Source: Ulota crispa | Lineage: Eukaryota; Streptophyta; Bryopsida; Orthotrichales; Orthotrichaceae | DNA length: 64,000 nucleotides | Reading direction: 5' to 3' | Assembly (NCBI GenBank): GCA_963920765.1 | Contig: OY987248.1 | Span: 5,862,539 to 5,926,538, forward strand | In this document: positions 1,289-62,934 of the stretch, one piece after another | Layout: every line of letters begins with the position of its first letter | Numbering within the stretch: the stretch's first letter is position 1 | Translations under genes and position numbers: made by a program | The notes under the pieces: generated by a model | Seen by the model: only the letters and a program-made list of their open reading frames with translations | Told to the model about the DNA's origin: nothing | Databases searched by the model: none

Positions 1289-4200
1289 CTAGAGATCAAA
1301 ACTCACAGAATGGTAGCTAAACGCCACTCTGTGCGGGTCATTGTTGATTGTGTTGAAAGCTCGGCATGTTTCTGCAACGCTGACTGCAAGACTTTGGGGA
1401 CCACAAACTAAAACCCCCGCGTTTGCACCAGGTCTTTGAAACTTTGTGTAACCATCGAAAAACTCTGCAAAAGCATCACACCTTTTAGAAGCAAATAAAT
1501 CCGTCTTCCGAGTATGTTGACTGATCTTTATAATCGAACGGCTATTTCTAGAGTTTGCCGTTCTAACAATTACAACATTTACAGAGAATGCAACACTGAC
1601 AGCTGCATAAGATAGAAAATATCTACACAGACTATTCCAAAGATAAACTCCATCAAAATGCATGCAGCAAAATAGTACCTAGATAATTGAGGGGGAATCT
1701 GACTTACCTCTCACGTTAGGCCGATGTCCAAAATGAGTATTGGATGGATGCACTAGTCGATCTGCACTCTCGGTAGCATACATTGTTCCATCATTATCTG
1801 AAGTAGACAAAAGACGAGTGTGCTCTTCAGCAACTCCTGAAGAAGCCTGATGTAACGACGTCCCCAAGGAGTTCCACAGTGATGCTACAAAACCCCCAAA
1901 TATCACCACCCCTAAAACCATACTTAATATACTAATTAAGCCCGTCATCCACTGTGGTGTACCTTCACTAGTTCCATTTCCCTCTTGTTCAAAAGGCTGC
2001 CCTATCATATGACTGATAACGAGGTAAACAACAATATAACCTAGTAATGAGGCAAGGAAACATGCAGTAATCCACAAATTGTTTCCAGCACCCGATACTA
2101 TTGACATTGGGTGTTTCAAAGCTTCAGCGTTGTTTAGGCTGGTTAAAATAGGAGATCTCTTGAAGTCGTCTGGTTCTTGCAACTCTGGTGTTTCAGGGTC
2201 ACGCTCTAAGCTAAGGGCTGCAGGCTCACGGGTAACAAAGGCGTGGACTTTGAGGTTAAACTTTAATTTGTAATCAGGACAGATGGTAGACGCAGGTATC
2301 AAATCAAGGAGTTGAAGCTCCTCTGATTTTTGTACTGCCCAAATTAGGTGTACATTTGATGGAAGATTGGGTTGCCCTCGTTGGTATCGCTGAAGTAAGT
2401 CGCGTATGATCGCCACAAAAGGCGAAATACCAATTCCTCCTGCCACCAGTATAAGCGTCTCGTATCTAGAGAACACAGCAAGTCATCATCATTCTCGATC
2501 TATGTGAGATAATCATACACCAAGGATGTATTTAATCTACAGAATTTATGTGTCCTTAGATTGAACACAACGTATAGTGTGTGTCAAGCAAAGTTTCCCT
2601 TCAAACCTCACAGCCCAAGACAAGCCAAGTTGCATACTAAATTGAAAAATCCAAATGTGATGTACATTCCCACCACGAACAGCAGAAATCAGACTAGGCA
2701 ACAAATGCCATTGTTGGTAATAAATAAATTGGGATAGAAGATAATGGAATATGAAACCGATAGATGAGGCTTCGAGTTAGATGGAAAAAGAAAGAGCTTG
2801 AAAGAGGCAGAGGCTTTGAACTTACTGAAGAAAGAAGTCAGATTCATGACCATATGGCCCTTCAACAGCAGCACTAATATTTGAGGGGCTTCGTCCTGTC
2901 TTCACGACAGCCATAACCAAATCATGTAACTCAAAGGTCCATCCTCCAATGGAAGGTTTTATCAAGACTTTAAGCCATCTGTCTCCATCATAAGGACTGG
3001 AGGACACACTAAATGGGTGCCATTGTAATTTGGAGACTTCCGGAACGTTAAGATAAATGTAACTTAGCGCGTGATATTTTACACCTGCATAATCCAATTT
3101 TCGTGTAAGAACTTGAACTCCAGATTAACAACGAGAACTACATTTCAACTAATTCATTTCAAATCAAGGTTGGATGGGTTCAAGAATAAGGAAACAAGTG
3201 TATGAAGTACAGGTTGTGACAAGAGTGGAGTGTATTAAGTACAGAACTGAGGCCCATATAGTCGTAATCTCAACTAGCCTGTGGTCATAATGCATATCTT
3301 CCTTAACTCATCATCAAGGTTCTAGACCATGGACCTCTCTGCATTTGCTTTCAGACAAAGAAGCATCCAACATAGCAGAAACCAATGCCACACCAGGAAG
3401 AAAAAGAAGAAGAAAAATAAACAATAGATGCTGATGTACCTGGCGACTTGGCTAATGTCAGCTCAAAAGTCCCGCAAGGTAGACACTTGGTTGAAAGAAC
3501 TCCAACACTGCTTCTCGATTGGCAGAAGCGCAGAAATCGATCAAAAACAAATAAAAACAGTCCACAGAATGTGATGTTGAAGAGCACATCTCCAACATGA
3601 AACGCCATGAACAACACAAACACCACGTAGAGATGGTGGAACCAGTAAAAAGTTTCAAAATATTTCTTTCGAATCCATCCTATTGATGTAATCCACATTG
3701 TAATGCCAGCCGACAAGGCTATGACTCCTGCAAAATTTGCGACCTTGTGAGGTGCCCAGTCAAATATCTGTAGACATCCAACACGTTAAGTTAAGTAAAT
3801 AAAAGATGGAATACTTCTACTTTCCAGTTAAGATATGAGCTTTGCATGACCAAAAATGAGCAGAAAAAAGATTTGAGCTACAAATGAAATGCCTTGAACA
3901 AAAGCGTATTAACATGGTTTTTAGTGAAAATAGATTGTTTCAAGAATTTTTAGACAACATCATAGGACGATTGACTGCAACGAGGCAAGATATGCACAAC
4001 CCAATTCATGGAGAGACCTCCCTACAGAGGACACCCTATGATCAGTTGCTAGTAATTATTTGAAAGGTTCAAATGTCCCTATAAAAACATATAAATTCAC
4101 AACCTTCAACAATTTCAAAAAAGTGCATGGGAATGTTTCCTCAAAATTGACCTACTTAATTGCTATCTCCTCACTGCACACTTACCCATTTATGATGTAA

Positions 4201-7108: not shown

Positions 7109-7189
7109 TTAATCTATCACTAAGATCAATCTGGAATATTTCAATGTAGAGCAATTGCACACTCTAGGGTGGAGAATCTTAGAGAACAT

Positions 7190-7605
7190 ACTAGACTTCT
7201 TAGATTTGATAACGCATACCTAATTTCACACGCATCCGATCTAACGTGAATCGAAGGTACGCTGTACGAAGCCGTATTACTTAACAATTCAAGATGTTTG
7301 GAAACGGAAATCGAATTTTTCCAAACACACACTAGACTTCTCAAATTTGATAACACATACCTAATTTCACACGCATCCAATCTAACGTGAATCCAAGGTA
7401 TGCTGTACGAAGCCATATTACTAAATAATTCAAGATGTTTGGAAACGGAAATCGAATTTTTCCAAACACACTAGACTTCTTAAACTTGATAAAGCACACC
7501 TAATTTTACAAGCATCCGATCTACAGTAAATCAAAGGTACGCTGTACTAAGCTATGTTATTGAATAATTAAAATTATTTGGACACGGAAATTGAATTTTT
7601 TTCAA
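7190..7605. repeat. Three diverged tandem copies of a ~140-bp unit
   Basis: Units begin at 7190, 7331 and 7470 (ACTAGACTTCT...), giving periods of 141 and 139 bp. Each contains a block like CGCATCCGATCTAACGTGAA, then GGTACGCTGTACGAAGCC, then GGAAACGGAAATCGAATTTT. Copy 3 is the most diverged. It lies between the hAT-like element and the GC-rich island. Confidence 0.8.
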
Positions 7606-25900: not shown

Positions 25901-27441
25901 ACGAAAACCTGAGAAGAAAATTCACCTGCTTGTTGTTAGATCGAAAGTTTTAATACATCGTAAATGTAAATACTGACCTTTATGGCCCAGTTGACAGCCA
26001 CAGCAGAGGACGCAGAAGTGCCTCGAGATACACCCAAAGCATGCAACAGCGACCGAGTAGTGAACACACTCATCGCTCCTCCAAAAAAATACTGCAATTC
26101 AGAAATGGAACAGAAAAGCTGAAAAGATGATCATACATTTTAAGCTCACTGCCAAGTATCCAAACATCAACAAGATGATCATACATTTTAAGCTCAGTGC
26201 CAAGTATCCAAACATTAATAAGATGATCATGCATTTTAAGCTCACTACCAAGTATCCAAACATCAATAAGATGATCATATATTTTAAGCTCACTACCAAA
26301 TATCCAAACATCAATAAGATGATCATACATTTTAAGCTCACTGCCAAGTATCCAAACATCAACATAATGCAAACTAAATGGCTCTTGTCCTTTGAAAGTT
26401 TCTTTCAAATCTTTTCAACCTTCAGCATTGAAAAGAGTCCAGTCAATTGTAGAGTAATATGAGCTTGCTGATAACCCTGACTTACGGATTACAACCGTCA
26501 ATGCAAAGTGTTACTGAGTTAGAAATCGGAGACCGGAAAAAACTGCTTTTATATTCTATTTGTTTCTGGTATCCTTGGTGTGAGATTATAAAAACCTGCA
26601 CAGCTCGCCATTGCATATACGGTGTGTACGAAGGGGCAACACTGTCGGGATAGCCTTCCGGTACAATATACGATTTCACGAATGTAACTAGCTCCTGCAA
26701 AAATCAATGGCGATCCATCAGAACTTGAACAGATATTTTCCTTTTCCATTGATAAACTTTTGCAAAACAGTCTTAACCAGTGCTAATCCTATTGCGAGTT
26801 TTTGATGTACAATCTTAACCATTGCTAATCTTATTGCGAGTTTTTGATGTACAATCTTAACCAATGCTAATCCTATTGCGAGTTTTTGATGTACAACAGT
26901 AGCCAAAAAAATATGCAACGGGATTCAATATATATATATATATATCGCTAATCGATCGAATTCGGATTCATGCTGATTGTGTTTGATATTATTTTAAACG
27001 ATCTGAGTGGAGTTGAAAGAGACGTACAGCCACAGGATCGCGGTGCTGCTTGGCGTGCATGACTTGCATCGTTTTCTCCCCGATCTTACTCACGTACTTC
27101 CATTGCACTCCCCCGGACCTCTCCTTACACATCACCACGCCATCGCGACGCTCCCTCTCCGCCTCAACTCGCGCCTGCTGCTGCTGCTGCTGCACGAACC
27201 GCACTCTCTCTCGCTCCTGCTCTCTCACAGCCGCTTCCACTAAGACCTCCTGCTTCACCCTCGCCCTATCCCTCCTCCGCCTGCCTACTCGCTCCCCGCG
27301 TTCCGTGCTCTCGCTCAAGGACTTGGTCAAATTCTGCAACATGAACGGCGTCACGGAAGGAGATCCGCCTCCCGCAATTCCTCCGCTTGTCATCAAACTC
27401 GTGCGACTCACGCCTCCTGTCATACCTCCTCTACCAGCCAT
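22965..27441 (-). CDS. RUS4: RUS4-like DUF647 protein (13 exons, complete)
   Basis: ROOT UVB SENSITIVE family protein; biochemical role not established. Exons: 27028-27441, 26596-26694, 25978-26091, 25745-25816, 25507-25617, 24983-25102, 24662-24763, 24375-24447, 24154-24234, 23787-23851, 23469-23570, 23156-23290, 22965-23021. All junctions keep one frame, giving about 514 residues, normal for the family. Landmarks in order: a basic, Gln-rich N-terminus; IVPEGYPDSVAPSYTPY; FTTRSLLHALGVSRG; DGAGRIGKMIFARHGKKFD; LGAGVELAT; LPLACAANVAKNVAAVTSS (across exons 5-6); NIGDVTAKGEC; GTGLGIFISKRNPSL; TLNRARFGVVVQSFLETG; FPWQEKP; terminal ETLLNPGDSRLCA. The C-terminal LNPG-RLC end and GRIGKM-FAR block fit the RUS4 branch rather than RUS1/2/3/6 as I recall them. 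Start chosen at MAGRGG; an in-frame upstream Met lies at 27471. Minisatellites occupy introns 1 and 2. Confidence 0.92.
26126..26365. repeat. 48-bp minisatellite, five copies, in RUS4 intron 2
   Basis: Units start at 26126, 26174, 26222, 26270 and 26318 (GATGATCATACATTTTAAGC...). They differ at few positions, suggesting recent expansion. As 48 is a multiple of three, all frames can stay open, giving repetitive translations on both strands that are not genes. Confidence 0.95.
26768..26898. repeat. ~42-bp minisatellite, three copies, in RUS4 intron 1
   Basis: Unit CTTAACCAGTGCTAATCCTA plus TTGCGAGTTTTTGATGTACA, repeated three times with few changes. A TA microsatellite follows at about 26928-26946. 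Confidence 0.9.
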
Positions 27442-30894: not shown

Positions 30895-33800
30895 CTATCG
30901 GGTGCTTGCATCAGGGAACTTGTTAGTGATGCGAGTAATGTATTTCACAATTGTAGGATCTGTTGACTTCTTAAGCTTCATCAGCACCTTGAAAAGTTCA
31001 GGCGATCGTAGGTGGTGCCGGCAGGGTGCGTGAATGCACATGTTGCCCAATGAAAATAGAGCAATTTTGAGAGGAGATTCACTGCTTACTTCGCGTCTTT
31101 CATTAGTTGGAGCGGCTGCACAGTCAGCAATTACTTGACACAAAGCCTGCATGCGAAAACCACGTAGACTACATTAGACACGTCAGAAAAGAAATGAAAG
31201 GGTCCTTGTTAAAAATTTACGATGTTTTATGCTTGTAGGACCCCATATTAAAAAGGGAAAATTTCATGATTATTCCTGAAGTTTGCAATATTTTCATAGA
31301 TACCCCTGCTTTTTCAGAAATGTCACAAGTACCCTTGGATCAAAAAAATTAGGCATTTGTTTTGTTGTGCATACCACTTCCCTTCTTCCTTCGTACGCAT
31401 GCATGACAGGAAAGAAGTAGTGTGCGTACAAAGGGAGAAGGAAGTGACATGCACAACAAAACAAACGCCTAAATTTCTTGGCCCAAGGGTATTTGTGAAA
31501 ATTCTGAAAATGTAGGGGTACCTATGAAAATATGGCAAACTTCAGGGGTATCTATGAAATTTTCCCTTAAAAAAAAATCTAAGGATTAGTCTACACACGA
31601 ACACTGGAACTGTGCGATACATACTGGTGTAAGCATATCCAGCAGAGAGAACAAAGTATCGAGGGAAGTTGCATAAAGTGAAGATGGAATCCTCAACAAG
31701 TAAGAACGTGAGTTTCTATATGAGCGAAAGTTAGACCACGAGGTGGACCTCGAACAATGAAATAAGAACTAGGGATATATAATTCAGCTGTATATAGAAT
31801 TAAATCGCATTTGAGTTAGAAGTATCCAGACAACGTGTACAGGACAGGCTTCAGACCTGCATTGCCCCCTTCGAGATAATGTCATCACAGAGCCTGCCGG
31901 AGTTCCTCACGAGGTTACTGAGAGCACCAGCTGCGTTTGCTTTAGTCTTATCTTCCTCATCTTCTAGCAATAATCTAGTAAGATGAGGAATGCAACGCTG
32001 CAGTTGATCGTAAAGCCGATCATCGTGATAAGCGGCATTCCCAACCTGTAAGTAGCACCAATAGGTATTACGTACCAAAATTCCTTCGTACCACATCCTA
32101 GAGCATGACTTTTAGGATCAGCAATGGCTCTAATGGAGATCTTTCAAAATCTTGTTGAAATAGGAGCGTGTAGAATTGGGCTTTGCATAAGAACATCCAA
32201 GTAAAGACTATCGTTGCTATAAGTTAAGTAAGAAAATAATTAGAAACATTCAAAAGAAGCAAAGAAATACAAATAGCGTACCGCAAAGCAGGCAAACTTG
32301 CGTGTATGTCTATCTGGATCCACACATCGGTCAATGAGAATATTGATGATGTCATACTCAATCTGTCAACAGAAAAAGTGCATTCAATCAGAATTCTTTA
32401 GGCCACAGTAATGGAATCATAACAAAATGCAAGAGAGCATGTGCTAATTTATTAAGTGAATGGAAGTCGAGAACCTTTTGAGACAATATACAATTTGATG
32501 AAGCAGAAAAGGCATACCAGAGGGTCGTAAAAGTAGGCCGTATGTCGACACATATTCCCTAGGGCACTACAAGCCTTAGATCGAATGCCAGGATCCGTGT
32601 GGTTAAGACAAGCTTTCAAAGCATCCCATAAGTTAGCCCGTCCTATCAGCTCATAAAAATCCTGTACATCACGCCAGACCCCTGGTTATAAATTGATGTG
32701 TCTGAAAAATGAATAAAATGAGAGCATATCCTTAAGAGCCACAAAACGCGGCTGCTTGTAAATTGCAGAAACACGGGGCTTAACAAATTTCCCCCTGACA
32801 ATTTGTTTACAGAGAAGAACTCTACTTACGACTCTACTGTCTGTAGCACAAATCCGTAACAGTTTTCATGGGTTAGAGTGCACCATAGAATTCAATAAAC
32901 GAAACCGAGGGAAATCACGATTATGGCCTTAACGGAGCTCCAAATTCGAAAGCTGACCTATGTAGCAATTTTTAAAACGATGTCCAAGACCAAGGCAAAA
33001 AAGGTGTACTGCTGACTAGCAATAGAAAAGATATTACCTTGTTCATGCGGGAAAGGTTGGATAGTGTCATAAGCACATCCCGCACAACCTCCTTGGGAGA
33101 GGCGGGGTCCAAGAGTTTGGCCATCAGGGCAGCACCGAGAAAGCCTTCCGAAACCACTTCTCCTGCCAAAACTCTTGAGCTCTGGACCATTCGGGCAATG
33201 AGCCCAACTGGCCTCCCTAGATCATTTGTATCTAGTAACTCAAGGCATCTGACAAGAGGCGCTGCAGCATGAACCTAATATACGGGTACAAGAATCGTCA
33301 TAAAACTTGGAGGTTAAAAATGACCCAAAGGTGCATACTATTGGTAAAAAACAGAGGAAGCACTAAGCACAAATCTAATTTATTCAGAACATTTCTAGAA
33401 TCAGTGCTCGCACGCTCATGAATCACTTAGTACGAAAGGAGAATCCAGCATGTAACAACTGCCACTCATCCTAGTTGGATTGATCAACGCACTGTGGGTC
33501 CTGATGTGTAAGCATTTACTGCAACTTTCAGTAGATGTGTATCTGAGGTTCACAGCATTGTGAAGGTCATCTCAAGAAAACAATGTAAGTAACAAAGAGG
33601 TTGTGAATTGTCTCAAACATTACCTCTTGAAGGAGTTGCCAGTACTGCGGCATATTTGCTGCCATAGCTTTAGCTACATCTGTGCCTGAATCAGTTGTTA
33701 TTTTCCCACCAGGTGAAGGAGCGTTAAGAGCTGCATTGTTGCTCGACGCTGAGCCAGGAACTTGTCCTGGGATGCTCTGTGCTTGCGCAAAGGGAAATTC

Positions 33801-36800
33801 CAGGACCCCGACAATCTCATGCACCACGGCCCGCAATCCATCACGACCACCACAATTTCCTTCCCACAGTTGTAAATGTGAAAGATGAACCCGATCCATG
33901 AGGTCCAATAAGGTCAGCACAGGATCACGGCGAAATAAGATATCACGATAGCCTCCACCCTTAAGCGTATATGCTATGGCGGATACTGCCCATGTGACAC
34001 CTATAGGTGACAATCCTATCAGATCATCCCCTAAGCCATTAGTCTCATCATTATCATCCCCTTGCTTTGAGCCACCAGCTAGTAAGGTCACCAAGATAGT
34101 TGGGAAACCCATTGAATGACATTGTTCAGCAACGCTTGCACCTCCCCAACGAAGCCGTGCCTCAATGAGTCCAACACATCCATCTCGGATCCCATGCCAG
34201 GTTGTGAGCATACCAGAATTACGACCATGTGCATCTTGAGTTGGAAGGGCAATCTGGGGAGAAATTTTGATAAAGTTACGAAGGGCAGAAAGGGAGGGAA
34301 AGGTTGGCAAGGATAGTGCAGTCTCAGCAGTCCAAGCGGGAACGCCACTTTTTAGTTCAAGGCCTTGTTCGAGTGCAAGAATTGATGACAAGGCCAGCAT
34401 GGCTGCTGCACAACGTGGTGGCAGTGAATCGCCTGCAATACAGAAAAATGAAAGCACGACGAGTTCAATGCACAATTGTCACTAAGTAACAGATACCTCA
34501 GAGGAACAAAGTAAACGTCAAGAAAAGAATGAGCTATTTTGTCCTTCGCAGTAACCGTATTCCAATCACTTATTGGAAATTGCAACCGATAACATCAGTA
34601 AAATACATGAGCATATAATGACAGATTTCTAAATTTCACTGTGGAAAAATAGTAAACTCGCCTGTTGGAACAGTCTCAATTGAAGCCTGATGAGCAAGAG
34701 CTGCCAATCTTGCACGTTGCTTTGGTTGAGATGTGGTGAGGATACAGGAAGCTCCACGTCTCCCTCTAGATGCCAGCCCTTGCGCAACAGCAGCAAGAGC
34801 TAAACAAGCATGGGTGATAAGATCTCCTGTTACGTTTGCTACAGTTCCTCCATCACCGTCGTTTGCACCGTTTGGAGTTGCCACACCTGGAGCTCCATGT
34901 AAAGACAGGACTTTATACAATGCAGCCACTGCTGTGCCATCCCCACCTCCACTGATTGTATTGTACGATGCTGGTTCATGGGTTGGAATTCCTGCTAGAA
35001 CGTCACATACTAGCCGAGAAAGGTTGCAACATCCTAGTAGTACCTGCATAACCCAAATCGAAAATTAGTCCAGATAATAACGGCAGACCGGAAAATAGTG
35101 AAACAACTAGGTTTGGAAGCTGAACAAGAGCCAAGTCTAAAGGTAAATATTGGCTCAGCAATTTAGGAAAACTCATAATCCGTCAATATCGGATAAGATA
35201 CTCTTTGCATCTAACGCTGAACATTAGAACAGGCTAAAAGGGTGCAATATGAAGTTCTTCCGCCACTCGTGTTCACAACTATATGCATACAGTGGAAAGC
35301 CACCTTGGGGCCATTGAGACTTCCTGGCGACGACTTAGGAGCAAAGCCAATAGGGGATTCTCAATACTCATAATCCGTCTTTAGCTGAGATATATACCAC
35401 CTACATGTGGTTCAATACTAGTATTGTTGAATACCTGTATAGTCGCAGAGAGTGCTGCATCAGATCCGTGTAGAAGGGCATAAGATCCTGCAGCCTGGAC
35501 ACCCCTTGACTTGGCCATACAGTCAGTCACCGTCTCAATCACTCCGGATGCTTCGTCACTTTTGGAATTTTCTTCATCTCCTTTCTTGTCATCAGCCCAA
35601 TTTTCAGTAAAACCCCGCAAAGCTGCCAAGGGAAAACCCTGTCTTTGTTCCCCCTTCCCCGATGCTAATTTCATGCTACTCATAAGAGCCCATAGAGCTT
35701 TGTATGCCTCACCAGCCACTGGTGCAGATGTGCTAGCACCTGATATGAGATTTGATCCTGAAACGCGTCATAGAATCTATTATGAAAATGCAGATTTTAC
35801 TGGCTTTCTAATGATAAATCGAAACACTCTATAAATTTTCAAAATTGGGATTACCAAGACATTTGAGGAGTGAAAAAGCTAACTTACTGAAGAAGGAATG
35901 ACTTGGTCGATCGATCGAACTGAGTACAAAAATGAAATGACTACAGACATCGAACAAAGAACTGAAAAGTAGTAAAACCTCTGGCAAAGTATTATCACCT
36001 GTTGCCCCCAAGCACGAGCAGAGATGATCAGCGGTGTTAAGAACCTTGGCTTGTGTGATAATCTGAGTCATTGTTTGCCCTTCAGCAGTGGCCGCACCTC
36101 CAACATTCTCAGTTCCATCGGCGCCTGGTGCCAACAGCGCGGAAAGTCCTGTTGCGACTCTTGTGAGGAGGACTGCTACACAAGACGTCGACTCGTATAA
36201 AACGCGACCAGATGAATCATGGGCATATGCCACAGCCTGTTAGACATGGACATCAACATCTTCGAGGGATGAGAATAACATAAACAGCATATTCAGCAGC
36301 AGAATATGATGATGATGAAATAAAACCATCTCCAGCTGCCTCTTCTGTCGCAGCGCCAGACGTACAAGTAATGAGGTTCAAGAAACCAACCTGAGGATAC
36401 AAGCGTAGAAGTGCAACACTTGGATGAAGAAAGGAGCCGTTTATCTTTCCCGCTCCCACTTCGATAAGCTTGCGTAACACACCGAGTCCCTAGGACAAAC
36501 AACAAAACTAATAAAGTCCTGATCTTACAAGCACTGGGGGCTTGCAAAAACTACAATGTTTTATATATGTAAATCATTCTGCATACCTTGATGAGAAGGT
36601 GGACATGCTGGCCATTGGAAGCATTCAACGTTGCTTTTAACAAAACAACCACGGTTGGAATCACATCTTCAACAGCCACTGTCTGACTGATAGCATTCCC
36701 AGCAAGCAGGTTTGATAAAACGCGCAGAGATTGACTGGCTGCGGAACTTGCCTGCTCACTGTCAACCCAACTTTCAGATTCTTAAAGTCACAAGGCTTGG

Positions 36801-51399: not shown

Positions 51400-54300
51400 C
51401 GCACTTGCAATGTTTGGATGCTGTAGGACATTTTTGGGCATAAGAAAACCTGCAATTTTCATGAAAGATTTCTATAAGGTCAATTATTTGAGTTGGGTTC
51501 ACATAACTCCATAAATCACACTAGTACAAAATTGCGTTGGAACTTACGTTTTCATATCATGTAGTCTTTGTTGAGTTCCTTGTTTCCAACGTAGAATTTG
51601 CATTGGAAATAAGGAACTTAACAAAAACTACATGATATGAATACGTGAGTTCCAATGCAATTTTCTACTAGTACCAAATTTTCTACTAGTACCAAGAGTA
51701 AAAAAAATTACATTTACTTGGAAAAACCATGAAGGGTAAGTTTTTTTTCTCAATTACGTCTTTGGGCAACTTACTCAGAAGATGATTTGCCAACCCTCTT
51801 TGGTACAATGCCCACTAAACAATTGCTGCTCACATCTCTGCAGTAATAAATTAAAACAACACCAAACCTCTAATAAACAAATAAACATATTGAGTAACTT
51901 AGATTTTTTTGCAAATAAAAAATTTCAATCACAACAACAGATTTCGTTTAAAACTTAATAATAATAATAATGCAAAAGGTTTTTTAAAGAAAAAAAAAAA
52001 AGCTTACAGATGGTCAAATTTATTTATGCGCATGTGAGGAAGCCTTCCGCTAAAATAATTGTTCGCCAAATTGCTGCAGAGGAATGTAGTGGCATATTAA
52101 TTTATTGTATATCTAAATTTGAATTGTATTTTATTAAATCTCTCTTGAAAATTTCATATACAAATAACAAACTTTTTCCTCAATGTAACATATTAGCATT
52201 GTACAATATTGAAATTTTAACTAATTTTAGATTGTGCAAGGTTTAGAAATAATAATCCATAAGTAAAATATTGGGAGACTTATGCAAAACATCCTAAAAG
52301 CTATGCAAAATCAATTGAGACTTGTGTCCCTTAAGATCAAGGGATCTTCCTACAATTTAGGGACAATTTTGAGAATTACATGAATAATTCAAATTTAGTT
52401 AAATATGGCATAAAATTTAGTTATTTATAAATCTTGAGAATTGGAAACTTTGCAATTTCCAAGTTAGATATGTTGTATTGAAAGAAAGAAAAATGACTTA
52501 CATAGATTTGACTCTAGATTTGAAAAAAGTACGTGGTACATTTCCTTCAAGCATGTTATTGCTCAAATCTCTATACCACCACATAATATCCAAGGTTTAT
52601 TAGAGTCACCAAAGAATCATGGATGAATAACAATCCAATGGATGAATAAAAATCCATGGTAGAAAGACCATTATATATGGAGAAGTCTTTAAATGAGAAG
52701 TAAATTGTATTTAGTAATAAGACTTACACATGTTTCAAATTTGGAAGCAAACCATGCAAATCATTGGAAACTTTTCCAGTAAATGCATTATTTGACAAGT
52801 CCCTGCATTCACGTGTAGTTATTGTATATCCGGAATTTTAGATTTCAAAATATAGAAATAAGAATTTTTATACCTCGGTTAATAATATTTATTTATAAAA
52901 AAATTAGTAAATTATTCACAGAATGTTACGTAATTTTTTGAATTATACTGCCTATTTTGAAAACATGGTTAATTTGTGAGAGCCATACAAGAATTTAAGA
53001 TTGGGAAGGCCATTGATGACGCCTTCATTTAATTGAGTCCTGAATTTACCACAAAACCGAGCACAAAACACAAAAACCAAACAAAAGTTATAGTGTTGAT
53101 GAAATCAAATGTGAACGAATATAATTTAAGTCTTATTACCATTGTTTTTTAAGAAAGGAAGTAAAATTTAATGTTTTTTTTGAAATAGAATTTCCTTACA
53201 AATCCGAATGAGCTGAGTCCAATAAAAGTCGGTTGTTGTCATTTTTGTTAGTATTTTCTTGAGGTTTTACTTGAGGTTTATTTTGAGGTTTTTCTTGTTT
53301 GGTTTCATCACAAGGTGGAACTCCGGGCCTACACAATAATATCATAACTTAGTATCACAAACAAAATTGCAAAAATCATGTCTTGCACTAACAAATGTAC
53401 GGTTTTAAAAGAAATGCCCATTTTCATTTTATAGCGTTAAATTTGCAACTTTGTAACACCTGTCATCATTTTACTATGATTCAAATATTTAATTTATTGC
53501 CCAGATTTTGATAATACAAACTTATGACTACTTTAGCAAAGAATTTAATCACAATCATCACCATAGTGTTATTTTTATTATTATGAAATCCCAAAATTTC
53601 ATTGAGTAATTTTGGTCTTCATTCAAATCTGTAAGCTTGTATAAAGCGCTAACATTGTCCTATTAACATTTTTTTAATACTTACAGTGGAGGAGGTTTGT
53701 GTCCTGCAAATGGATTTGTAAAATTGAACCTGCACATTTTAATCAGAACCTCAACTTTCAAACACATGTCGACCAAAAAGTATTTATTTTAACACATTTC
53801 GTGCTAGAATAAGAAATACTACTAAGAGATTATTGTTTTTTTTGTAAAATACAAAAACACAAAATATAGTTTGAAAAAACTTACAATGGCTCATTTGGAA
53901 TGGTAAAATTTGGTGGTATAAGACTTGGAAGTGGAGGAAGTTCTGGAAGGGTGAAATTGGGAGGGGCAACTTCCGGCAAAGGAGGTAAACTTGGAGCTGT
54001 GAGATCAGGTGGTGTGAACGGAGGTAAAGTGGGCAGGGTAGGTAATGTCAAGTTTGGAAGGGTAAATTGAGGGAGAGGGGGTAAAAGAGGGAATGTGAAA
54101 TTGGGAGGGGTAAATTGAGGAAGTGGTGGAATGCTGAAATTAAAGGGTGAAGGAAATGAGAAATTAGGGGGTGTAAAAGGAGGGATGGGAGGGAAGGTGA
54201 AGTTGGGAAGTGAGGGTTGAGGGAGAGGAGGAATAGTAAAATTAGGAGGGATGACTTGGGGAAGTGGAGGGGAGGTAAAGTTGGGGGTTGTGAATGGAGA

Positions 54301-57300
54301 GAGAGAGGGGAGAGGGGGGAGTGTGGGAAATGTGAAATTTGGGGGTGTGAGTTGGGGAAGAGGAGGGAATGTGAAGTTAGGGGATATAAAATCAGGGAGT
54401 GGTGGAAAGGTGAAGTTTGGATGTGGAAGTTCAGGTAGAGGGGGTAGAGTGGGAAATGTGAAATTTGGTGGTGAAAACTCTGGAAGTGGAGGAAATGTAA
54501 AGTTGGGAGGTGTGAATTGAGGGAGTGGTGGAAGTGTGAAGTTTGGAGGGGCAAATTCAGGGAGAGGGGGGAATGTTGGAAGAGTAAAGTTTGGAGGTAT
54601 AAATTGAGGAAGTGGTGGAAAGGTGAAGTTGGGGTGTGTAATTTCAGGGAGAGGAGGTAGTGTGGGAAATGTGAAGTTTGGTGGTGAAAACTCTGGAAGT
54701 GGAGGAAATGTAAAGTTGGGAGGTGTGAATTGAGGGAGTGGTGGAAGGGTGAAGTTTGGAGGTGCAAATTCAGGTAAAGGAGGGAGAGTTGGAAATGTGA
54801 AGTTTGGAGGGGCAAATTCAGGGAGAGGGGGGAATGTTGGAAGAGTAAAGTTTGGTGGTATATATTCAGGGAGAGGGGGGAATGTTGGAAGTGTGAAGTT
54901 AGGAGGTGTAAATTCAGGGAGTGGTGGAAAGGTGAAATTAGGGTGTGTAAATTCAGGTAGAGGGGGGAGAGTTGGAAATGTGAAGTTCGGAGGGATAAAC
55001 ACAGGTAGAGGAGGGAATGTTGGGAGGGTGAAGTTTGGAGGTGTAAATTCAGGAAGTGGAGGAAATGTAAAGTTAGGAGGTGTAAATTGAGGTAGAGGGG
55101 GGATTGATGGAAATGTGAAGTTAGGAGGTGTAAATTGAGGAAGTGGTGGAAATGTGAAACTAGGGTGTGGAATTTCAGGTAAAGGGGGGAATGATGGCAA
55201 TGTGAAATTTGGAGGTGTAAATTCAGGTAGAGGGGGAAGTGATGGGAATGTGAAGTTTGGAGGTGTAAATTTAGGTAGAGGGGGGAGTGTTGGAAGTGTG
55301 AAGTTTGGTGGTGAAAACTCTGGAAGTGGTGGAAATGTAAAGTTAGGAGGTATAAAGTGAGGAAGTGGTGGAAATGTGAAATTAGGGTGTGTAAACTCAG
55401 GTAGAGGGGGGAGTGATGGAAGTGTGAGGTTTGGAGGTGTAAATTGAGGTAAAGGAGGGAGTGCTGGAAATGTAAAGTTTGGAGGAGCAAATTCCGGTAG
55501 AGGGGGGGTTGATGGTAAGGTGAAGTTAGGGTGTGTCAAATCAGGTATAGGGGGGATTGATGGAAATGTGAAGTTTGGTGGAAGAAATTGAGATAGAGGA
55601 GGGATTGATGGAAGGGTGAAGTTTGGTGGAGTAAATTGAGGTAGAGGAGGGATTGATGGAAGGGTAAAGTTTGGTGGAGTAAATTGTGGTAGAGGAGGGA
55701 TTGATGGAAGGGTGAAGTTTGGTGGAGTAAATTGAGGTAGAGGGGGGATTGATGGAAGGGTAAAGTTTGGTGGAGTAAATTGTGGTAGAGGAGGGATTGA
55801 TGGAAGGGTGAAGTTTGGTGGAGTAAATTGAGGTAGAGGGGGGATTGATGGAAGGGTAAAGTTTGGTGGAGTAAATTGTGGTAGAGGAGGGATTGATGGA
55901 AGGGTGAAGTTTGGTTGAGTAAATTGAGGTAGAGGGGGGATTGATGGAAGGGTAAAGTTTGGTGGAGTAAATTGAGGTAGAGGAGGGATTGATGGAAGGG
56001 TGAAGTTTGGTGGAGTAAATTGAGGTAGAGGGGGGATTGATGGAAGTGTTAAATTAGGGTGTGGAAATTGAGGTAGAGGGGGGATTGATGGAAGTGTGAG
56101 GTTTGGTGGTACAATTTGAGAGAGAGGGGGAAGTGTGGGAAGTGTAAAATTTGGAGGAGTAAATTGAGGTATAGGGGGGATAGATGGTAAGGTGAAGTTA
56201 GGGTGTGGAAATTGAGGTAGAGGAGGGATTGATGGAAGGGTGAAGTTTGGTGGAGTAAATTGTGGTACAGGAGGGATTGATGGAAGGGTGAAGTTTGGTG
56301 GAGTAAATTGTGGTAGGGGTGGGATTGATGGAAGGGTGAAGTTTGGTTGAGTAAATTGAGGTAGAGGGGGGATTGATGGAAGTGTGAAATTAGGGTGTGG
56401 AAATTGAGGTAGAGGGGGGATTGATGGAAGGGTAAAGTTTGGTGGAGTAATTTGTGGTAGAGGAGGGATTGATGGAAGGGTAAAGTTTGGTGGAGTAAAT
56501 TGAGGTAGAGGGGGGATTGATGGAAGTGTTAAATTAGGGTGTGGAAATTGAGGTAGAGGGGGGATTGATGGAAGTGTGAGGTTTGGTGGTACAATTTGAG
56601 AGAGAGGGGGAAGTGTGGGAAGTGTAAAATTTGGAGGAGTAAATTGAGGTATAGGGGGGATAGATGGTAAGGTGAAGTTAGGGTGTGGAAATTGAGGTAG
56701 AGGAGGGATTGATGGAAGGGTAAAGTTTGGTGGAGTAAATTGTGGTAGAGGAGGGATTGATGGAAGGGTGAAGTTTGGTTGAGTAAATTGCGGTAGAGGG
56801 GGGATTGATGGAAGTGTGAAATTAGGGTGTGGAAATTGAGGTAGAGGGGGGATTGATGGAAGTGTGAAATTTGGGTGTGGAAATTGAGGTAGAGGGGGGA
56901 TTGATGGAAGTGTGAGGTTTGGTGGTACAAATTGAGAGAGAGGGGGAAGTGTGGGAAGTGTAAAATTTGGAGGAGCAAATTGAGGTAAAGGGGGGATAGA
57001 TGGTAAAGTGAAGTTTGGGTGTTGAAATTGAGGTAGAGGGGGGATAGATGGAAATGTGAAGTTTGGTGGGGTAAGTTGAGGTGGAAGTGGTGGAAGTGAA
57101 AAGTTAGGAGGTGGTGGAAAAGAAGGAAATGTAAAATTTGGTGGTGGAAGTTCAGGGAGAGGAGAGAAACTTAAGTTTTGGGGAAGATTGATAGTTTTGT
57201 TGAGAAAACGAAACAATGGGCTTTTTTGAAGTGGTGGTAATGATGGAAGTACAATATTCCTACAAAAACAATATTTGCAAGTTAAATCACTAGTTTATTA

Positions 57301-60300
57301 GTCATTCTTATAAAAATGAACTATTATATTGTAATTGAATAGTTGTTATATTTTATAAATATTCTTATATTCAAATGGAATGTTCAGCATGTTAAACAAG
57401 AACACTTATGAACTATAATTTATTTATGAACCAAATTTAGATGGATATTGAAAGTATGTGTAGAATGGATACAAGAATATAGAACATGACTTACAATGAT
57501 GGCAAGTCTTGTGTGTAATTCCTGATCCAATGACAAATACATATATTATTACCAAATCTGATTGCTATTATGAATACAATTTCCAAAGATGCATATGATG
57601 GCCACATTTTGTAAAAATAAGAAATAAGTTATTAACTAGGTTGTTGAAAGAAAACTAATTACCATGGCAATGCCCATGATGGCCAAAACAAAAATGTTGG
57701 GCTGCAATTGCTGCAAATTTTACAAACCACCAAATAATTACATCATTGATCCAAGGCCATCTCAAAATTCATGTATTCATTTGTCACATAATAGCTCTTA
57801 AATTTTATTTGAAAATAATATTAGTGTAAACAAAAAAATCAAAAATTAAGTACTTACCATGCTAAGTCAAATAGGAAATCTGAGCCATTCCTGCATCAAA
57901 CACAACAAAATGTAATTAAAAACAAGTTAAAGTTTACCAATTAAAAATAATAATATTTTAAAGCTCTTTGAATTCATTAGGATAACATTTTTGAAAATTG
58001 GAGATGAGGCAAAGCCATGAATGCAAGTTGAAATTCAAAAAACGTGTATGATTAAAGGCAAGTAGCAATACAACTTACATATATGGCATTAAAGGTAACG
58101 TGTAATTTGGAAAGCTTGCAAATCTGCAAAAATGACATATGCTCAAATGCTCAAATCTAATAATTATATTCCAATCTATATCTCTAGCTTGACAAAGTAA
58201 TTGAAAAACTGGTTAGAACATATTAATTTGGTTATTCTTGAATGACATTGAAAAAGAAAAACTCAAAATTCACAATTGTAACATACGGTGGTGAGAGTTC
58301 AGGAAGTGGAACTTCAACTGGAGCTTCAGGATAACCAGGGATTGTCCAATTTGATGTATGAAATGTTCTGCATTTGTCAACAATGATGCCAAAAACATAA
58401 TTATCAATAGCAAATCCCCAAGGTAGAACAGCTACTACAAAATTTAAATTTAGATAATTTTGTTTCATCTAATTTACTTGAAAACAACAAAAACAAAACA
58501 CTAGGCAATGGGCAGTGCAAAATTCAGATTATATTCTAATGACTATTTAAATTGGAGATTTTGGGGTTCAATTTTGTTTGTATGTATTGCACTAGAAGAA
58601 AAATGTGTCCTAAACAATTGGTACACAACAACTACAAATGTCCTAAACAACTATAATTGAGTCATTGTATAGTTGTTTAGAACATTTGCAGTAGTTGTGA
58701 ACCAATCATTTAGGACATGTAATTCTTCTAGTGTTGATAGCACCACTAGAAAATGACACAAATTTCATTCTACTTCTAAGCATAAACACCAAGTGCCCAC
58801 TCTAGATATGATCAATTGAGTATATTGTAGTTCAAAAGGTACTACATGATTAGGTTACAAGATATAAGAGAATCCATTGAACATAACCCTTAATTTTGTT
58901 GAATTAATATACTTTAATTAGGATAGTTAGATCTTAAAAATCTAAGAGAAGTTCACCTACTTTTGGCCTTGTTGCAAAACTAACTTCTATAAACTTTTAT
59001 TTATTGTAAAATCAATTAGTATGAACTTTTACTTAACATGAACATCTTTTGAACATGAGAGTGTGGTAATAATCAAACTTTGGGGAGTTCACAATTAGTT
59101 CACATGGCATTCAACAAGTTTATAATAGAGTAGTTTGAAATCCTTAAGAAAGTGCAACATTTGGGATGGGGGTTGTGATTTTGTTGTATATTCTTTTAGT
59201 TAAGTTGGAGATACATACACATTTGCAGGCAATGGGAGGGTGCCATTTGGACATAAAAATGCCCTGCCAAGGTCAAAACACAAAATTACATGATATAAAT
59301 AGTGGCAATTAAAATCCACATATAAACAAAATATACTTTCTACAGATACAACCTTTTAAAAATATCAACTTAGAAAACAAACAATGATAACTTAGGGCTG
59401 CTTAACACTAGGAGCAAAATTTTGTTTTAGATATCAAGAACGTTCCAATCTTTGCATTTCATTGGTTGAATATCTAAAATCATTCTCTTAATGTCTTTCT
59501 TCATCTTAGGAGATAATACCATAATTTATATCAATGTTGTGATGCTCAAAAATCAAGATTTGACAAAACTCAAGAACTAAATCCATGAAGAATAGCAAAG
59601 CAATTTGTTATCTTAGAATTGATGTGAGTTTTCATTAACATAAAACGATTTTATTACAATTTTTTCTCTTTTTGGGTAGGCAAACTAATGTGATAAAATT
59701 GAAATCCCTACTTCTATTTTTGGTCTCCCTTTTCATTCTATCCCTTCTCTAAATTTCCAAGGCACATGTTTAGGACCTCAAAGTGTTGGCCTCGACTTTT
59801 TGACAGCAAAGCCATACACATGAGAAAAAAGAATCCCCACAGCACTTTTACAATAATGAATACTTCAGGCACTAAAATTTTGTTTCAAGGGCCCCAAATT
59901 TTGATGGCCTCAACTCCTAGTGGAGATTGGCCGCTAGATAGGATCAGTAAAAGCTGAAATACTTGATGAACATGCTCCAATGTGAAATCAGAACAAAGTG
60001 GTTTATTAATTCTTAAACATTTAAGTGTGCCTATATGGTCTATATATATATTTTGGGTATTTGGAATAGATCAACACCTTTACTACATTTGAGATCAACA
60101 AAGAATTTGGAATATAAATCAATGCTGTCCTAGTGAGCTTTTTGATGGTAGTAAATGTCAATTACATGGCAACATATCTACTATACCCTAGGGACATTCA
60201 AGGGTTAAACTCAACAAAACTTGGCAACTTACAAAGTAGGTGTGTAAGTGTCACTCTTCCCATCTCTGCAACCCAAGGTCCATCCCATATCTATTAGAAT

Positions 60301-62934
60301 ATTTTGAGAAACAATCCAAATTGTGTATAAATTGTAGCTTTAATTCTTAAGCTAAGTTACTATTGTAGGTGGGGAGCAGATTCGGCTTCTCCCTGCCGAA
60401 TTAATTATTTTTCTAGAAAAACTCAATTCGGCATCAGATTGTATAATTTAACAAGATTAGGCACTTTTAAAAAAAGTTGTTATTATTTGGCATTCAATCA
60501 AAAATATATACTAGAATCAAGCCTTTTTCTAAGCATCTTCCACTTTCTAAAATTAGCTCTTGATAAAAAATTTGCAGTAGATTGAACCCTCTTGGAATCA
60601 ACCTTGACCTTCCATTGTTAGTTAAGCTTAATGACTTTTATGATATTTGGCATTTCAATTTTTGACTTGTTTGACATTGGGCATTTTTGGAGAATAATTT
60701 ATAGAATGATTAGGCAAAATTTTGGAGAATTATTTTATGCTGAATCTGCTCTCAACCTATAGTAGAGGGTTATGTGGGCTCTGGAATTTACGTTGTAGGA
60801 GACTTGGAAAACCACAATACTGGTACAACCACAGGTGGCAATGTGACATTCGCTGGTGTGAACATCACCACGGGCACGTTGGGAACGGTAAAGTTCACCA
60901 AAGTGATGATTGGCACAGGGATGGACACGGACAAATTTGAACTACATGGGGCTCCCCTGCAATTCACCACAAGAAAAAGACACTTAGAAAGAGAAAACAA
61001 TTGCAATAATAACACTAATTGCTCTCACCACTAATCACTACAGTAATAATGATGTTTAGTGTTATGGGAATTATATAGTGTTGTTCACAATATCATCAGC
61101 GTTTTTTCTGAGTGAGAGTCCGCTTAGGTGTCTTCTTTGGAGTGGAGGATATTTGGAGGGAGGGGCACTAAGTGGTCAAAATCTGTCAGATTTGGCAATT
61201 TTTTGCTAGGAAAAAAAAACGCTGAATATCATTCAGCTGACTTGAACTCTTGTTTAGTCGACAACTAAAGCTCATACTGATAATTAGTGCTAATGTTGGA
61301 TATTACTTTAGTGCATGCTAAACTAGTATGATGCTCATTTAAAAAGTTTGATGAAAATCTTGTAAACAACTAATGGTGGTCATGTTGACAATTAGTGTTG
61401 ATAGCATTAAGAGTGTTGCAATTTGTAATCTGGACATAATTATTATGCTCATGTTGCATAAGATTATGAAATCCTTCATTCACATTGATCTTACTACAAT
61501 TTTACACTATGTGCAAACTTTTCAAAGCCCCATAGCAAGGCCATATCCCAACCTTGTTTAATTGTAAACTTGTTAAAAGAGAAACAATCAAAAAAGATTT
61601 GCTTGAATATTTAATGTAGCAAATTGTTGGGAATTGGCTTGTAAGCTGAGTTTTTTTACAATTTTTTTTTGTTACGGCTAGATTTAATCATGAAAGCAAA
61701 GTTGCACTTTCTTGATGCCAAAGTTTTCTAAAAAGTGATATAATTGAGGTGTTTCTAAGCAAATTGAGACTGAGGATATAATGAAAGGATTTTTCTGTCT
61801 TTCAACCAATCAAGGTTTGAGAATTTATTGGAACTTAAAAATTGGGAGATTGTGGGGAATCAACATTAGTGGTTATTCTTTAAACCATCTTGATACATTT
61901 TTGTCATAGAAATGATTGATATTAGAGTGGAGGAGATAATTTATAATGACCTTTGTGTTTAAACCTCATGATATAATCTATGGTTGCATATTTATTAATT
62001 TGGTGAAAACCCAAATTTTGAACTTTAGAGTTTTTTCATTCTCAAAAGAGTATTTATTGAGCACTCTAAGGACAAAAAAATTCAAAAATCTCAAAATACA
62101 AATTTTTTCCTAAAGCAATAATTAACACATTTATTGTAGTTTTGGAATCTAAACCACAACTTTGAATGCAATAGAGGGTTCCTTGTGAATCTTAGTTAAA
62201 TTTGAAAAGTTTGTGTAGTTTGCTCACTGGCTTGGACTGATGCTTGGTAGAGAGCCTGTCAAATTGTTCCCAGCCAAGCTTCTGCACGACCCAAAGATGT
62301 GCAAAGATGTGTTATAAAGTGCAATTGAGAAGAATAATTCAATAATGATTTCTACACATGCAATTAGAGATTAAAATCCATATATTGTATCCAAACAAAT
62401 GGAGGTCTATAATTGCTCTCACCAACATTTTATCAATAAAACAAAACAATTCAAAAGTCTCTTCTAACGTGATTATGGAATGGAAGTAAACGAGCCTGAA
62501 AATTTTAATTTCTCTATTATTAGCACGCTAACCTGTAGCTGTGACTATTCTCTTGAGACATTAAAATAAACCAATAACAAAATCACAATCACTTTATAAG
62601 TCATTTTGAAAGGGCCGTTTTTTGAACTATAGAATTATAGGTGCACAAATGTTTTTTTTTGAGATCTTCAGTAGCTTATAAACGTTATGAACTAACACAG
62701 AAGTATATCAATGTGTGCAGGGATGATTCATTAACAATTGATTTATCTGTACTTTTAGCTCTGTTTACACTTTACATTCATTCATTATTAAATTTAACGC
62801 TATATTGGATACATCATAGCTTGAGTTACAAGTGGAGGTCAGCAAATGGCCCAACTTACAGTTTCTCAAGGCTCTTGAGGTCCAGTATCCATGATGGAAA
62901 TGTTCCGTTGAGTTGAGGGTTGGTTGCAATGATC
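51400..62934 (-). CDS. LRR / proline-rich N-glycosylation-repeat / LRR protein (partial)
   Basis: No exact family recognised. Nineteen exons, N- to C-terminal: 62860-62934, 62228-62281, 60792-60956, 60233-60265, 59219-59263, 58287-58367, 58079-58123, 57858-57890, 57663-57710, 57495-57521, 53885-57259, 53685-53729, 53200-53328, 52989-53039, 52728-52802, 52502-52570, 52008-52073, 51775-51837, 51400-51449 (about 1,509 residues so far). The first two are LRR ([31 protein letters not shown]). Exons 3-12 are proline-rich with NFT/NYT/NGT/NWT sequons. Exon 13 is a charged linker ([11 protein letters not shown]). Exons 14-18 are LRR ([42 protein letters not shown]). Exon 19 has four residues-spaced Cys ([10 protein letters not shown]). 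All 18 internal junctions are phase 2. Presumed secreted, wall or matrix protein; no kinase seen. First exon and signal peptide probably lie beyond the right edge; the last exon is unresolved. Confidence 0.8.
51529..51673. mobile_element. CACTAG-ended hairpin MITE in an intron
   Basis: CACTAGTACAAAATTGCGTT at the left; TGCAATTTTCTACTAGTA at the right. Arms continue through CATATCATGTAG/CTACATGATATG. A partial duplicate of the right end (TTTTCTACTAGTACC) follows at about 51679. It lies in the last mapped intron of the LRR/proline-rich gene. Confidence 0.65.
53885..57259 (-). repeat. Giant proline-rich repeat exon: ~70 units of 39 or 48 bp
   Basis: One 3,375-bp exon with no stop. It encodes tandem 16-residue units ([16 protein letters not shown]) in the N-terminal two thirds and mixed 13/16-residue units ([13 protein letters not shown]) in the rest. 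I count about 72 N-x-S/T sequons. Two predicted sites are lost (PHPSFT, PPDLT). Almost no Tyr, Lys or Cys; no SPPPP motif, so it is not a classical extensin. Lines of DNA at 56041-56220 and 56521-56700 are identical, a 480-bp (ten-unit) duplication. Open frames on other strands and frames here are by-products of the repeat period. Confidence 0.9.
58590..58733. mobile_element. CACTA-like MITE (144 bp) with TTG target duplication
   Basis: CACTAGAAGAAAAATGTGTCC and GGACATGTAATTCTTCTAGTG termini (first 12 bases exact complements), flanked by TTG at 58587-58589 and 58734-58736. Inner arms CTAAACAACTATA/TATAGTTGTTTAG. It sits in an intron of the LRR/proline-rich gene, between exons 59219-59263 and 58287-58367. 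Confidence 0.8.
61990..62130. repeat. Fold-back remnant, TTAATTTGG family
   Basis: Diverged inverted arms (TTATTAATTTGGTGAAAA; CAATAATTAACAC) around CTCAAAAGAGTATTTATTGAGCACTC. Lies in an intron of the LRR/proline-rich gene. Confidence 0.4.

What the first reader, a model, noticed from the sequence alone, without database searches (positions are those of the whole stretch)
51400..62934. LRR - sequon-studded proline-rich stalk - LRR protein, an unusual architecture
Seen: exons encode two LRR-type modules, then about 1,250 residues of proline-rich sequence, a charged linker, five LRR-type modules and a Cys-containing exon, all in one frame. Known: plant LRR-extensins (LRX/PEX) place a single N-terminal LRR domain before a C-terminal extensin tail of SPPPP/Tyr motifs. 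Here LRRs lie on both sides and the stalk is PPNFT-type. Inference: a secreted, heavily N-glycosylated wall or recognition protein, possibly a spacer joining two LRR heads.
Basis: partly seen in the sequence, partly recalled or inferred. Interest (0 to 1): 0.88.

Follow-up and report, generated by a model that had tools for sequence, protein, structure and literature searches.

The report
Moss LRR protein with sequon-studded stalk
A plant gene, probably from a moss, encodes a secreted recognition-type protein whose leucine-rich-repeat domain is cut in two by a very long, proline-rich stalk dense with predicted sugar-attachment sites, and the same layout occurs in the moss Physcomitrium patens.

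Summary
The minus-strand gene has 23 exons (window 62934-51218 plus four 5' exons just past the window end) and encodes 1,639 residues: signal-like N-terminus, LRRNT_2 cap, three and a half LRRs, about 1,290 residues of mostly proline-rich sequence, a charged linker, further LRRs and a Cys tail. Nineteen of 22 introns are phase 2. An uncharacterized Physcomitrium patens protein (981 aa) has the same order, with 72% and 70% identity in the two LRR parts, so the flanks are very unlikely to be separate genes. In the stalk exon 72 of 75 Asn lie in sequons (shuffle mean 5), and the repeats show purifying selection. There is no SPPP or YXY, so by motif it is not an LRX/PEX. The stalk follows an incomplete LRR and probably splits one repeat, but the tests of that are mixed. 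I favour one LRR head with a giant loop over two heads on a spacer; this is inference, as structure prediction failed. The stalk probe matched only this exon in its genome, and three protein searches found only the P. patens relative.

The parts
62860..62934 (-). exon 5: third LRR ([24 protein letters not shown])
   Evidence: 16 of 24 residues identical in P. patens P0121
62228..62281 (-). exon 6: first half of an LRR ([13 protein letters not shown]) that is not completed before the stalk
   Evidence: profile test
60792..60956 (-). exon 7: N-terminal stalk flank with sequons (NLS, NFT, NVT) and one Cys
   Evidence: aligned to P0121
59219..59263 (-). exon 8: short sequon exon ([13 protein letters not shown])
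58287..58367 (-). exon 9: short sequon exon (HTSNWTIPG...)
58079..58123 (-). exon 10: micro-exon, one sequon (NYT)
57858..57890 (-). exon 11: 33-bp micro-exon, one sequon (NGS)
57663..57710 (-). exon 12: 48-bp micro-exon, one N-C-S followed by Pro (not in the strict sequon count)
57495..57521 (-). exon 13: 27-bp micro-exon, one sequon (NYT)
53885..57259 (-). exon 14: stalk, about 1,125 codons, 48-bp tandem units of the type [16 protein letters not shown]
53685..53729 (-). exon 15: micro-exon [14 protein letters not shown], closes the stalk
   Evidence: 10 of 13 aligned residues identical in P0121
53200..53328 (-). exon 16: PGVPPCD plus charged linker
52989..53039 (-). exon 17: probable second half of an LRR (GVINGLPN) before LKF
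   Evidence: weak here, fair in P. patens
52728..52802 (-). exon 18: LRR
   Evidence: 19 of 24 identical in P0121
52502..52570 (-). exon 19: LRR
52008..52073 (-). exon 20: LRR
51775..51837 (-). exon 21: last LRR
51400..51449 (-). exon 22: C-terminal Cys segment ([16 protein letters not shown])
   Evidence: 12 of 16 residues identical in P0121
51218..51237 (-). exon 23: probable last exon with stop (PHRTL*), the least certain exon
   Evidence: P0121 also ends a few residues after the same Cys motif, in HRAK

Best explanation
A secreted apoplastic glycoprotein of mosses. Shown by sequence: an LRRNT-capped LRR region whose fourth repeat is left incomplete before a long, Tyr-poor, Cys-poor, proline-rich stalk with a sequon mostly every 16 or 13 residues, then more LRRs and a Cys tail. 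Inferred: the two LRR parts fold together as one solenoid of about eight repeats, close in size to secreted PGIP and LRX LRR domains, closed by the Cys segment. The stalk leaves it as a giant, extended, N-glycan-coated loop, an oversized analogue of the island domain of LRR receptors. Inferred further: with no kinase found and no clear membrane anchor, the LRR head binds a peptide or wall ligand in the apoplast, while the glycan-bearing loop keeps it hydrated and lodged in the wall, doing by N-glycosylation what the O-glycosylated extensin tail does for LRX proteins.
For: Gene model with 19 of 22 phase-2 introns. LRRNT_2 35.2 bits, above its cut-off of 20.7. P. patens protein with the same order, 96 of 133 and 86 of 123 aligned residues identical in the LRR parts. 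Incomplete fourth LRR: its first half is typical (69th and 68th percentile of 1,896 half repeats) and what follows is unlike any of 2,757 second halves (0th percentile) in both species. Rejoined halves give one LRR_8 stretch of 49.2 bits, 16.8 plus 24.2 for the pieces. 72 of 75 stalk Asn in sequons; 35 of 35 tandem units keep NFT or NLT, pN/pS 0.32. No kinase match in 7.4 kb downstream, three minus-strand frames. The P. patens N-half matches PGIP structures by sequence, as well as many receptor ectodomains.
Against: The structure prediction of the P. patens protein from one sequence failed (mean pLDDT 31.4), so packing of the halves is untested. I chose the joint by eye and left out residues on both sides of it; LRR_1 (33.2 against 16.2 plus 19.3 bits) and LRR_4 (46.5 against 23.6 plus 29.4) do not gain from joining. 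GVINGLPN is a weak second half (3.9th percentile; 43 of 1,335 windows between the halves score as well), fair in P. patens (30.1st; 1 of 690), and the 16 residues before it are not clearly non-LRR (about 15th percentile of real first halves). Glycosylation, secretion and ligand binding are predictions. One hydropathy window at residue 192 reaches 1.70 (P. patens maximum beyond residue 60: 1.35), so a membrane segment is unlikely but not excluded.
Confidence: 0.5

Rival explanations
1. Two independent LRR heads joined by a long spacer: each head binds its own partner, and the stalk sets the distance, a few hundred nanometres if fully extended (estimate from recalled polyproline rise per residue).
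For: Both LRR parts are well conserved (72% and 70%) while the region from LRR4 to linker differs twofold in length (1,305 and 668 residues). A Cys follows the N-part and a conserved PPCD precedes the C-part in both species and could help form caps. The half repeat at the start of the C-part is weak here.
Against: No LRRNT found on the C-part; the N-part ends with an incomplete repeat in both species; LRR_8 runs across the rejoined halves.
Confidence: 0.33
2. A diverged LRR-extensin (LRX/PEX) in which the extensin domain lies inside the LRR domain and has lost its motifs.
For: Secreted-type LRR protein plus proline-rich module; LRX2 and PEX1 LRR structures are among the sequence matches of the C-part (LRX2 56.2 and PEX1 52.3 bits; 67.7 and 65.7 bits for P. 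patens).
Against: 0 SPPP and 0 YXY in both species; the proline-rich module is internal, not C-terminal. The higher totals of receptor chains (GSO1 169.2 bits) sum many overlapping stretches and do not count against it.
Confidence: 0.08
3. A relic or low-complexity artefact: a tandem array that happens to be open between unrelated LRR exons.
For: Array of 48-bp units prone to slippage; other frames of the array are also partly open.
Against: Same order of segments in P. patens; pN/pS 0.32 only in the coding frame; consistent splice phases.
Confidence: 0.03

Closest known systems
Uncharacterized protein of Physcomitrium patens (P0121, 981 aa)
   Same: Same order of segments, conserved LRR parts, stalk flanks, charged linker and Cys tail; 51 sequons between LRR4 and linker, 82 here.
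   Different: That region is half as long (668 against 1,305 residues) and less regular (14 NFT against 62); more Gly, Trp and Tyr.
LRR-extensins (LRX/PEX)
   Same: Secreted-type LRR domain linked to a proline-rich module, no kinase.
   Different: LRX: signal peptide, LRR, then C-terminal Ser-Pro3-5 domain (PMC4769139, passages seen). Here the module is internal and N-sequon based, with 0 SPPP and 0 YXY.
LRR receptors with an island domain (BRI1, PSKR, LRR-RLPs)
   Same: LRRs interrupted by a non-LRR segment (BRI1: 70 residues, PMC6536576, start of abstract in a search listing; LRR-RLPs: PMC10834447, passages seen).
   Different: Here the insert is about 1,290 residues, near the middle of the LRRs, proline-rich and sequon-dense; no kinase found, no clear membrane segment.
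Polygalacturonase-inhibiting proteins (PGIP)
   Same: Secreted LRRNT plus about ten LRRs (recalled); the P. patens N-half matches PGIP chains 1ogq and 8ikw (74.8 and 73.1 bits).
   Different: Those chains are 313 residues long, too short to hold a stalk of this kind.

Membership tests
LRX/PEX (LRR-extensin) | LRR domain followed by a C-terminal Ser-Pro3-5 extensin domain | tested here: not met
   0 SPPP in the whole protein and in P. patens; proline-rich module internal, LRRs follow it. Definition from PMC4769139 passages
LRX/PEX (LRR-extensin) | LRR domain belongs to the LRX clade | not tested
   No tree was built and no LRX set fetched; LRX2 and PEX1 chains are among the sequence matches
Extensin (classical or moss EXTD) | SPn repeats with Tyr motifs | tested here: not met
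   0 SPPP, 0 YXY, 1 Tyr in 1,124 stalk residues; EXTD definition (SP2 and SPVYX) from PMC3149072 passages. SPVY itself was not counted, but one Tyr cannot make a repeat
LRR receptor with island domain | LRRs on both sides of a non-LRR insert | tested here: met
   LRR models match both parts, also in P0121
LRR receptor with island domain | the LRRs form one continuous solenoid around the insert | tested here: inconclusive
   Rejoined halves: LRR_8 49.2 bits (ours) and 42.2 (P. patens), cut-off 27, but LRR_1 and LRR_4 show no gain for ours (P. patens pieces not scored apart); profile test mixed; structure model failed
LRR-RLP | one or two transmembrane segments | tested here: inconclusive
   Hydropathy only: maximum beyond residue 60 is 1.70 (ours, residue 192) and 1.35 (P. 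patens); no TM predictor on hand
LRR-RLK | intracellular kinase domain | tested here: not met
   No kinase match in the downstream 7.4 kb in three minus-strand frames (the only row was SLATT_4 at 13.7 bits, below its cut-off of 27); P. patens protein ends after the Cys tail
Secreted plant LRR protein (PGIP type) | LRRNT and plant-type LRRs, no kinase | tested here: met
   LRRNT_2 E 1.5e-8 above cut-off; LRR_1 and LRR_8 above cut-off in the C-part
Secreted plant LRR protein (PGIP type) | signal peptide | tested here: inconclusive
   Hydropathy peak 2.48 at residues 14-32 (P. patens 1.69 at 9-27); no signal-peptide predictor on hand

The most novel reading that the evidence does not exclude
A moss lineage-specific class of apoplastic recognition protein in which one LRR solenoid carries a giant N-glycan 'brush' loop inside a repeat, grown from sequon micro-exons by tandem duplication. 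It would be an N-glycosylated counterpart of the O-glycosylated LRR-extensins, with loop length evolving freely while the head stays conserved.
Probability: 0.37. Interest if true: 0.75.

Novelty: new variant of a known kind. Interest (0 to 1): 0.58.

Why it matters
Plant wall glycoproteins with proline-rich modules are usually discussed as Hyp-O-glycosylated (recalled). A proline-rich stalk in which nearly every Asn is a sequon, placed inside a recognition-type protein and kept in two species, suggests a different way of building a wall-embedded receptor or decoy. It also makes a direct test possible: P. patens has the gene and gene removal is routine there (recalled).

Tried and rejected
Considered and rejected: separate genes for the two LRR flanks (the P. 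patens protein holds both); LRX/PEX membership by motif and order; a downstream kinase; stalk as non-coding array.

Led nowhere: the PF00560 search of the own genome rang nowhere, controls included, so it says nothing. The SPPPSPPP DNA pattern gave 11 places, equal to its backward control, so it is inconclusive about extensins in this genome. AlphaFold on P0121 alone failed. The first protein search, with a shortened 469-residue query, showed general LRR proteins (120 of 344 listed, 7,984 candidates scored); its length limit shut out P0121.

Mended on re-check: I had held lower total scores of LRX chains against LRX membership; totals sum overlapping stretches, so that point is withdrawn. A profile test of the split repeat made at re-check and the LRR_1 and LRR_4 rows weaken the single-solenoid reading; I lowered the best explanation from 0.58 to 0.50, the novel case from 0.40 to 0.37 and interest from 0.60 to 0.58, and raised the two-head rival from 0.27 to 0.33. 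The profile assumes 24-residue repeats and also scores at least one of the other repeats of this protein poorly (the 22-residue one, at the 0th percentile).

Limits: homolog searches score only the roughly 8,000 candidates sharing most words, and crowding by LRR proteins could hide other relatives. In one search, 1 of 98 proteins with E up to 1e-10 (P0121) covered more than 40% of the query. Plant genomes other than the window's own could not be scanned here. RNA support for the P. patens model was not seen.

Full report
What is there. On the minus strand of window 51.2-62.9 kb I spliced 19 exons in one reading. Fetching the adjoining DNA of the same genome (L001) showed four more 5' exons: a hydrophobic N-terminus starting with Met, an exon ENALVAFKQRLEHPEALESWNPQ...CSGKWRGVTC that matches LRRNT_2 above its Pfam cut-off, and two exons with LRRs. 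The full model has 23 exons and 1,639 residues. All 22 introns are GT-AG (I selected them so) and 19 of 22 are phase 2, including 18 in a row. The last exon (PHRTL and stop) is the least certain piece.

Independent confirmation. A protein search with the N-terminal 400 residues found P0121, an uncharacterized protein of Physcomitrium patens of 981 residues: E 9e-82, 45% identity over 91% of that region; the next best coverage among the listed matches was 49% (120 of 133 matches listed, 7,990 candidates scored). It has the segments in the same order: LRRNT, LRRs, sequon-rich proline-rich stalk, FNFTNP micro-motif, PPCD and charged linker, LRRs, KCP..SKHCKC tail. Identity is 96 of 133 aligned residues in the N-terminal LRR part, 86 of 123 in the C-terminal part and 62 of 142 in the short sequon exons. 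This answers the finding's own refutation test as far as protein models can; I did not see the RNA evidence behind the P. patens model. A search with a two-sequence profile showed no other full-length relative (98 matches with E up to 1e-10, 7,995 candidates scored). The genome has 274.8 Mb in 157 contigs.

The stalk. Exon 14 encodes about 1,125 residues: 35.9% Pro, 13.6% Phe, 13.3% Leu, no Cys, no Gly, one Tyr. Of its 75 Asn, 72 are in N-X-S/T sequons (X and the next residue not Pro); 2,000 shuffles of the same residues gave a mean of 5.0 and a maximum of 12. Sequon spacing in the whole protein is 16 residues in 48 cases and 13 in 16. Thirty-five consecutive 48-bp units taken in register, without selection by motif, all keep NFT or NLT; over 25 distinct units pN/pS is 0.32 in the coding frame, and 1.06 and 3.40 in the two other frames after units with stops (2 and 4) were left out. 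An earlier count with 50 motif-picked units gave the same ratio but is biased by the picking. In its genome all 15 matches of a stalk probe lie in this exon. Each of the eight short exons around the stalk (exons 7-13 and 15) carries an N-X-S/T; the one in exon 12 is followed by Pro and is not in the strict count (read). So a sequon array carried by micro-exons may have preceded the tandem expansion (inference).

The split repeat. The full LRR exons 5 and 18-21 are 63-75 bp with phase-2 ends; exon 6 (54 bp) and exon 17 (51 bp) are shorter. Exon 17 ends [12 protein letters not shown]; the eight residues before LKFL score as a second half at only the 3.9th percentile here, with 43 of 1,335 windows between the halves as good, but at the 30.1st percentile in P. 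patens (1 of 690). The 16 residues before them score near the 15th percentile of real first halves in both species, so they cannot be called clearly non-LRR. Rejoined by eye, leaving out residues on both sides, the halves give one LRR_8 stretch across the joint of 49.2 bits (cut-off 27) against 16.8 and 24.2 for the pieces; the P. patens joint gives 42.2 bits, its pieces not scored apart. LRR_1 (33.2 against 16.2 plus 19.3) and LRR_4 (46.5 against 23.6 plus 29.4) do not gain. No LRRNT was found on the C-terminal part. I still read this as one LRR domain of about eight repeats, the fourth interrupted, like an island domain but about 18 times the 70 residues given for BRI1 (PMC6536576, start of abstract in a search listing). 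Two heads on a spacer remain a serious rival: a Cys near the end of the N-part and the conserved PPCD before the C-part could help make caps. A single-sequence AlphaFold model of P0121 was useless (mean pLDDT 31.4).

How it probably works. No kinase match lies in the 7.4 kb downstream in three minus-strand frames; the only row was SLATT_4 at 13.7 bits, below its cut-off of 27. No hydropathy window beyond residue 60 exceeds 1.70 here or 1.35 in P. patens. So I infer a soluble apoplastic protein. The LRR head, whose P. patens relative matches PGIP and receptor ectodomains by sequence, would bind a ligand. The stalk, probably an extended polyproline chain with N-glycans, would hold it in the wall and keep it soluble. 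The region from LRR4 to linker differs about twofold in length between the two species (1,305 and 668 residues) while the LRR parts do not, as expected if the stalk acts through bulk and glycans rather than exact sequence.

Known families. LRX proteins have signal peptide, LRR, then C-terminal Ser-Pro3-5 modules, and five were reported in P. patens (PMC4769139, passages seen). This protein and P0121 have 0 SPPP and 0 YXY, so a motif-based survey of that kind should not count them; I could not read its supplement. Moss EXTD extensins are defined by SP2 and SPVYX motifs (PMC3149072, passages seen), also not fitting a stalk with one Tyr. My literature searches (listings seen, three papers searched for passages) showed no paper describing an LRR - N-sequon stalk - LRR protein; subscription journals are mostly not held.

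Verdict. The interpretation of a secreted, sequon-rich wall or recognition protein is plausible; whether the LRRs form one head or two is open, with one head moderately favoured. I rate it a new variant of secreted plant LRR proteins.

Noticed in passing
window 51520-51672: Intronic inverted repeat (70-nt arms, 90% complementary) between exons 21 and 22; similar copies across the genome at 77-94% identity (40 of 341 candidates scored), so a MITE-like family.
   Followed up: partly
window 58590-58733: A second intronic inverted repeat (66-nt arms, 85% complementary) in intron 8, also a dispersed family (40 of 1,170 candidates scored).
   Followed up: partly
window 57495-58123: A run of four micro-exons of 45, 33, 48 and 27 bp, all phase 2, each carrying one N-X-S/T (the one in the 48-bp exon is followed by Pro); 48 bp equals the tandem unit of the stalk.
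   Followed up: partly
window 1679-3785, minus strand: Exons of a ferric-reductase-type gene: Ferric_reduct and NAD_binding_6 above Pfam cut-offs.
   Followed up: no
window 33567-36239, minus strand: Several long open frames of what may be one large gene; only weak sub-cut-off Pkinase, Arm and HEAT matches in the 27-42 kb stretch, one frame tested. Not identified.
   Followed up: partly
window 7185-7600 and 26124-26362: Tandem arrays with periods of 141 bp (3 copies) and 48 bp (5 copies); not compared with the stalk beyond their consensus units.
   Followed up: no
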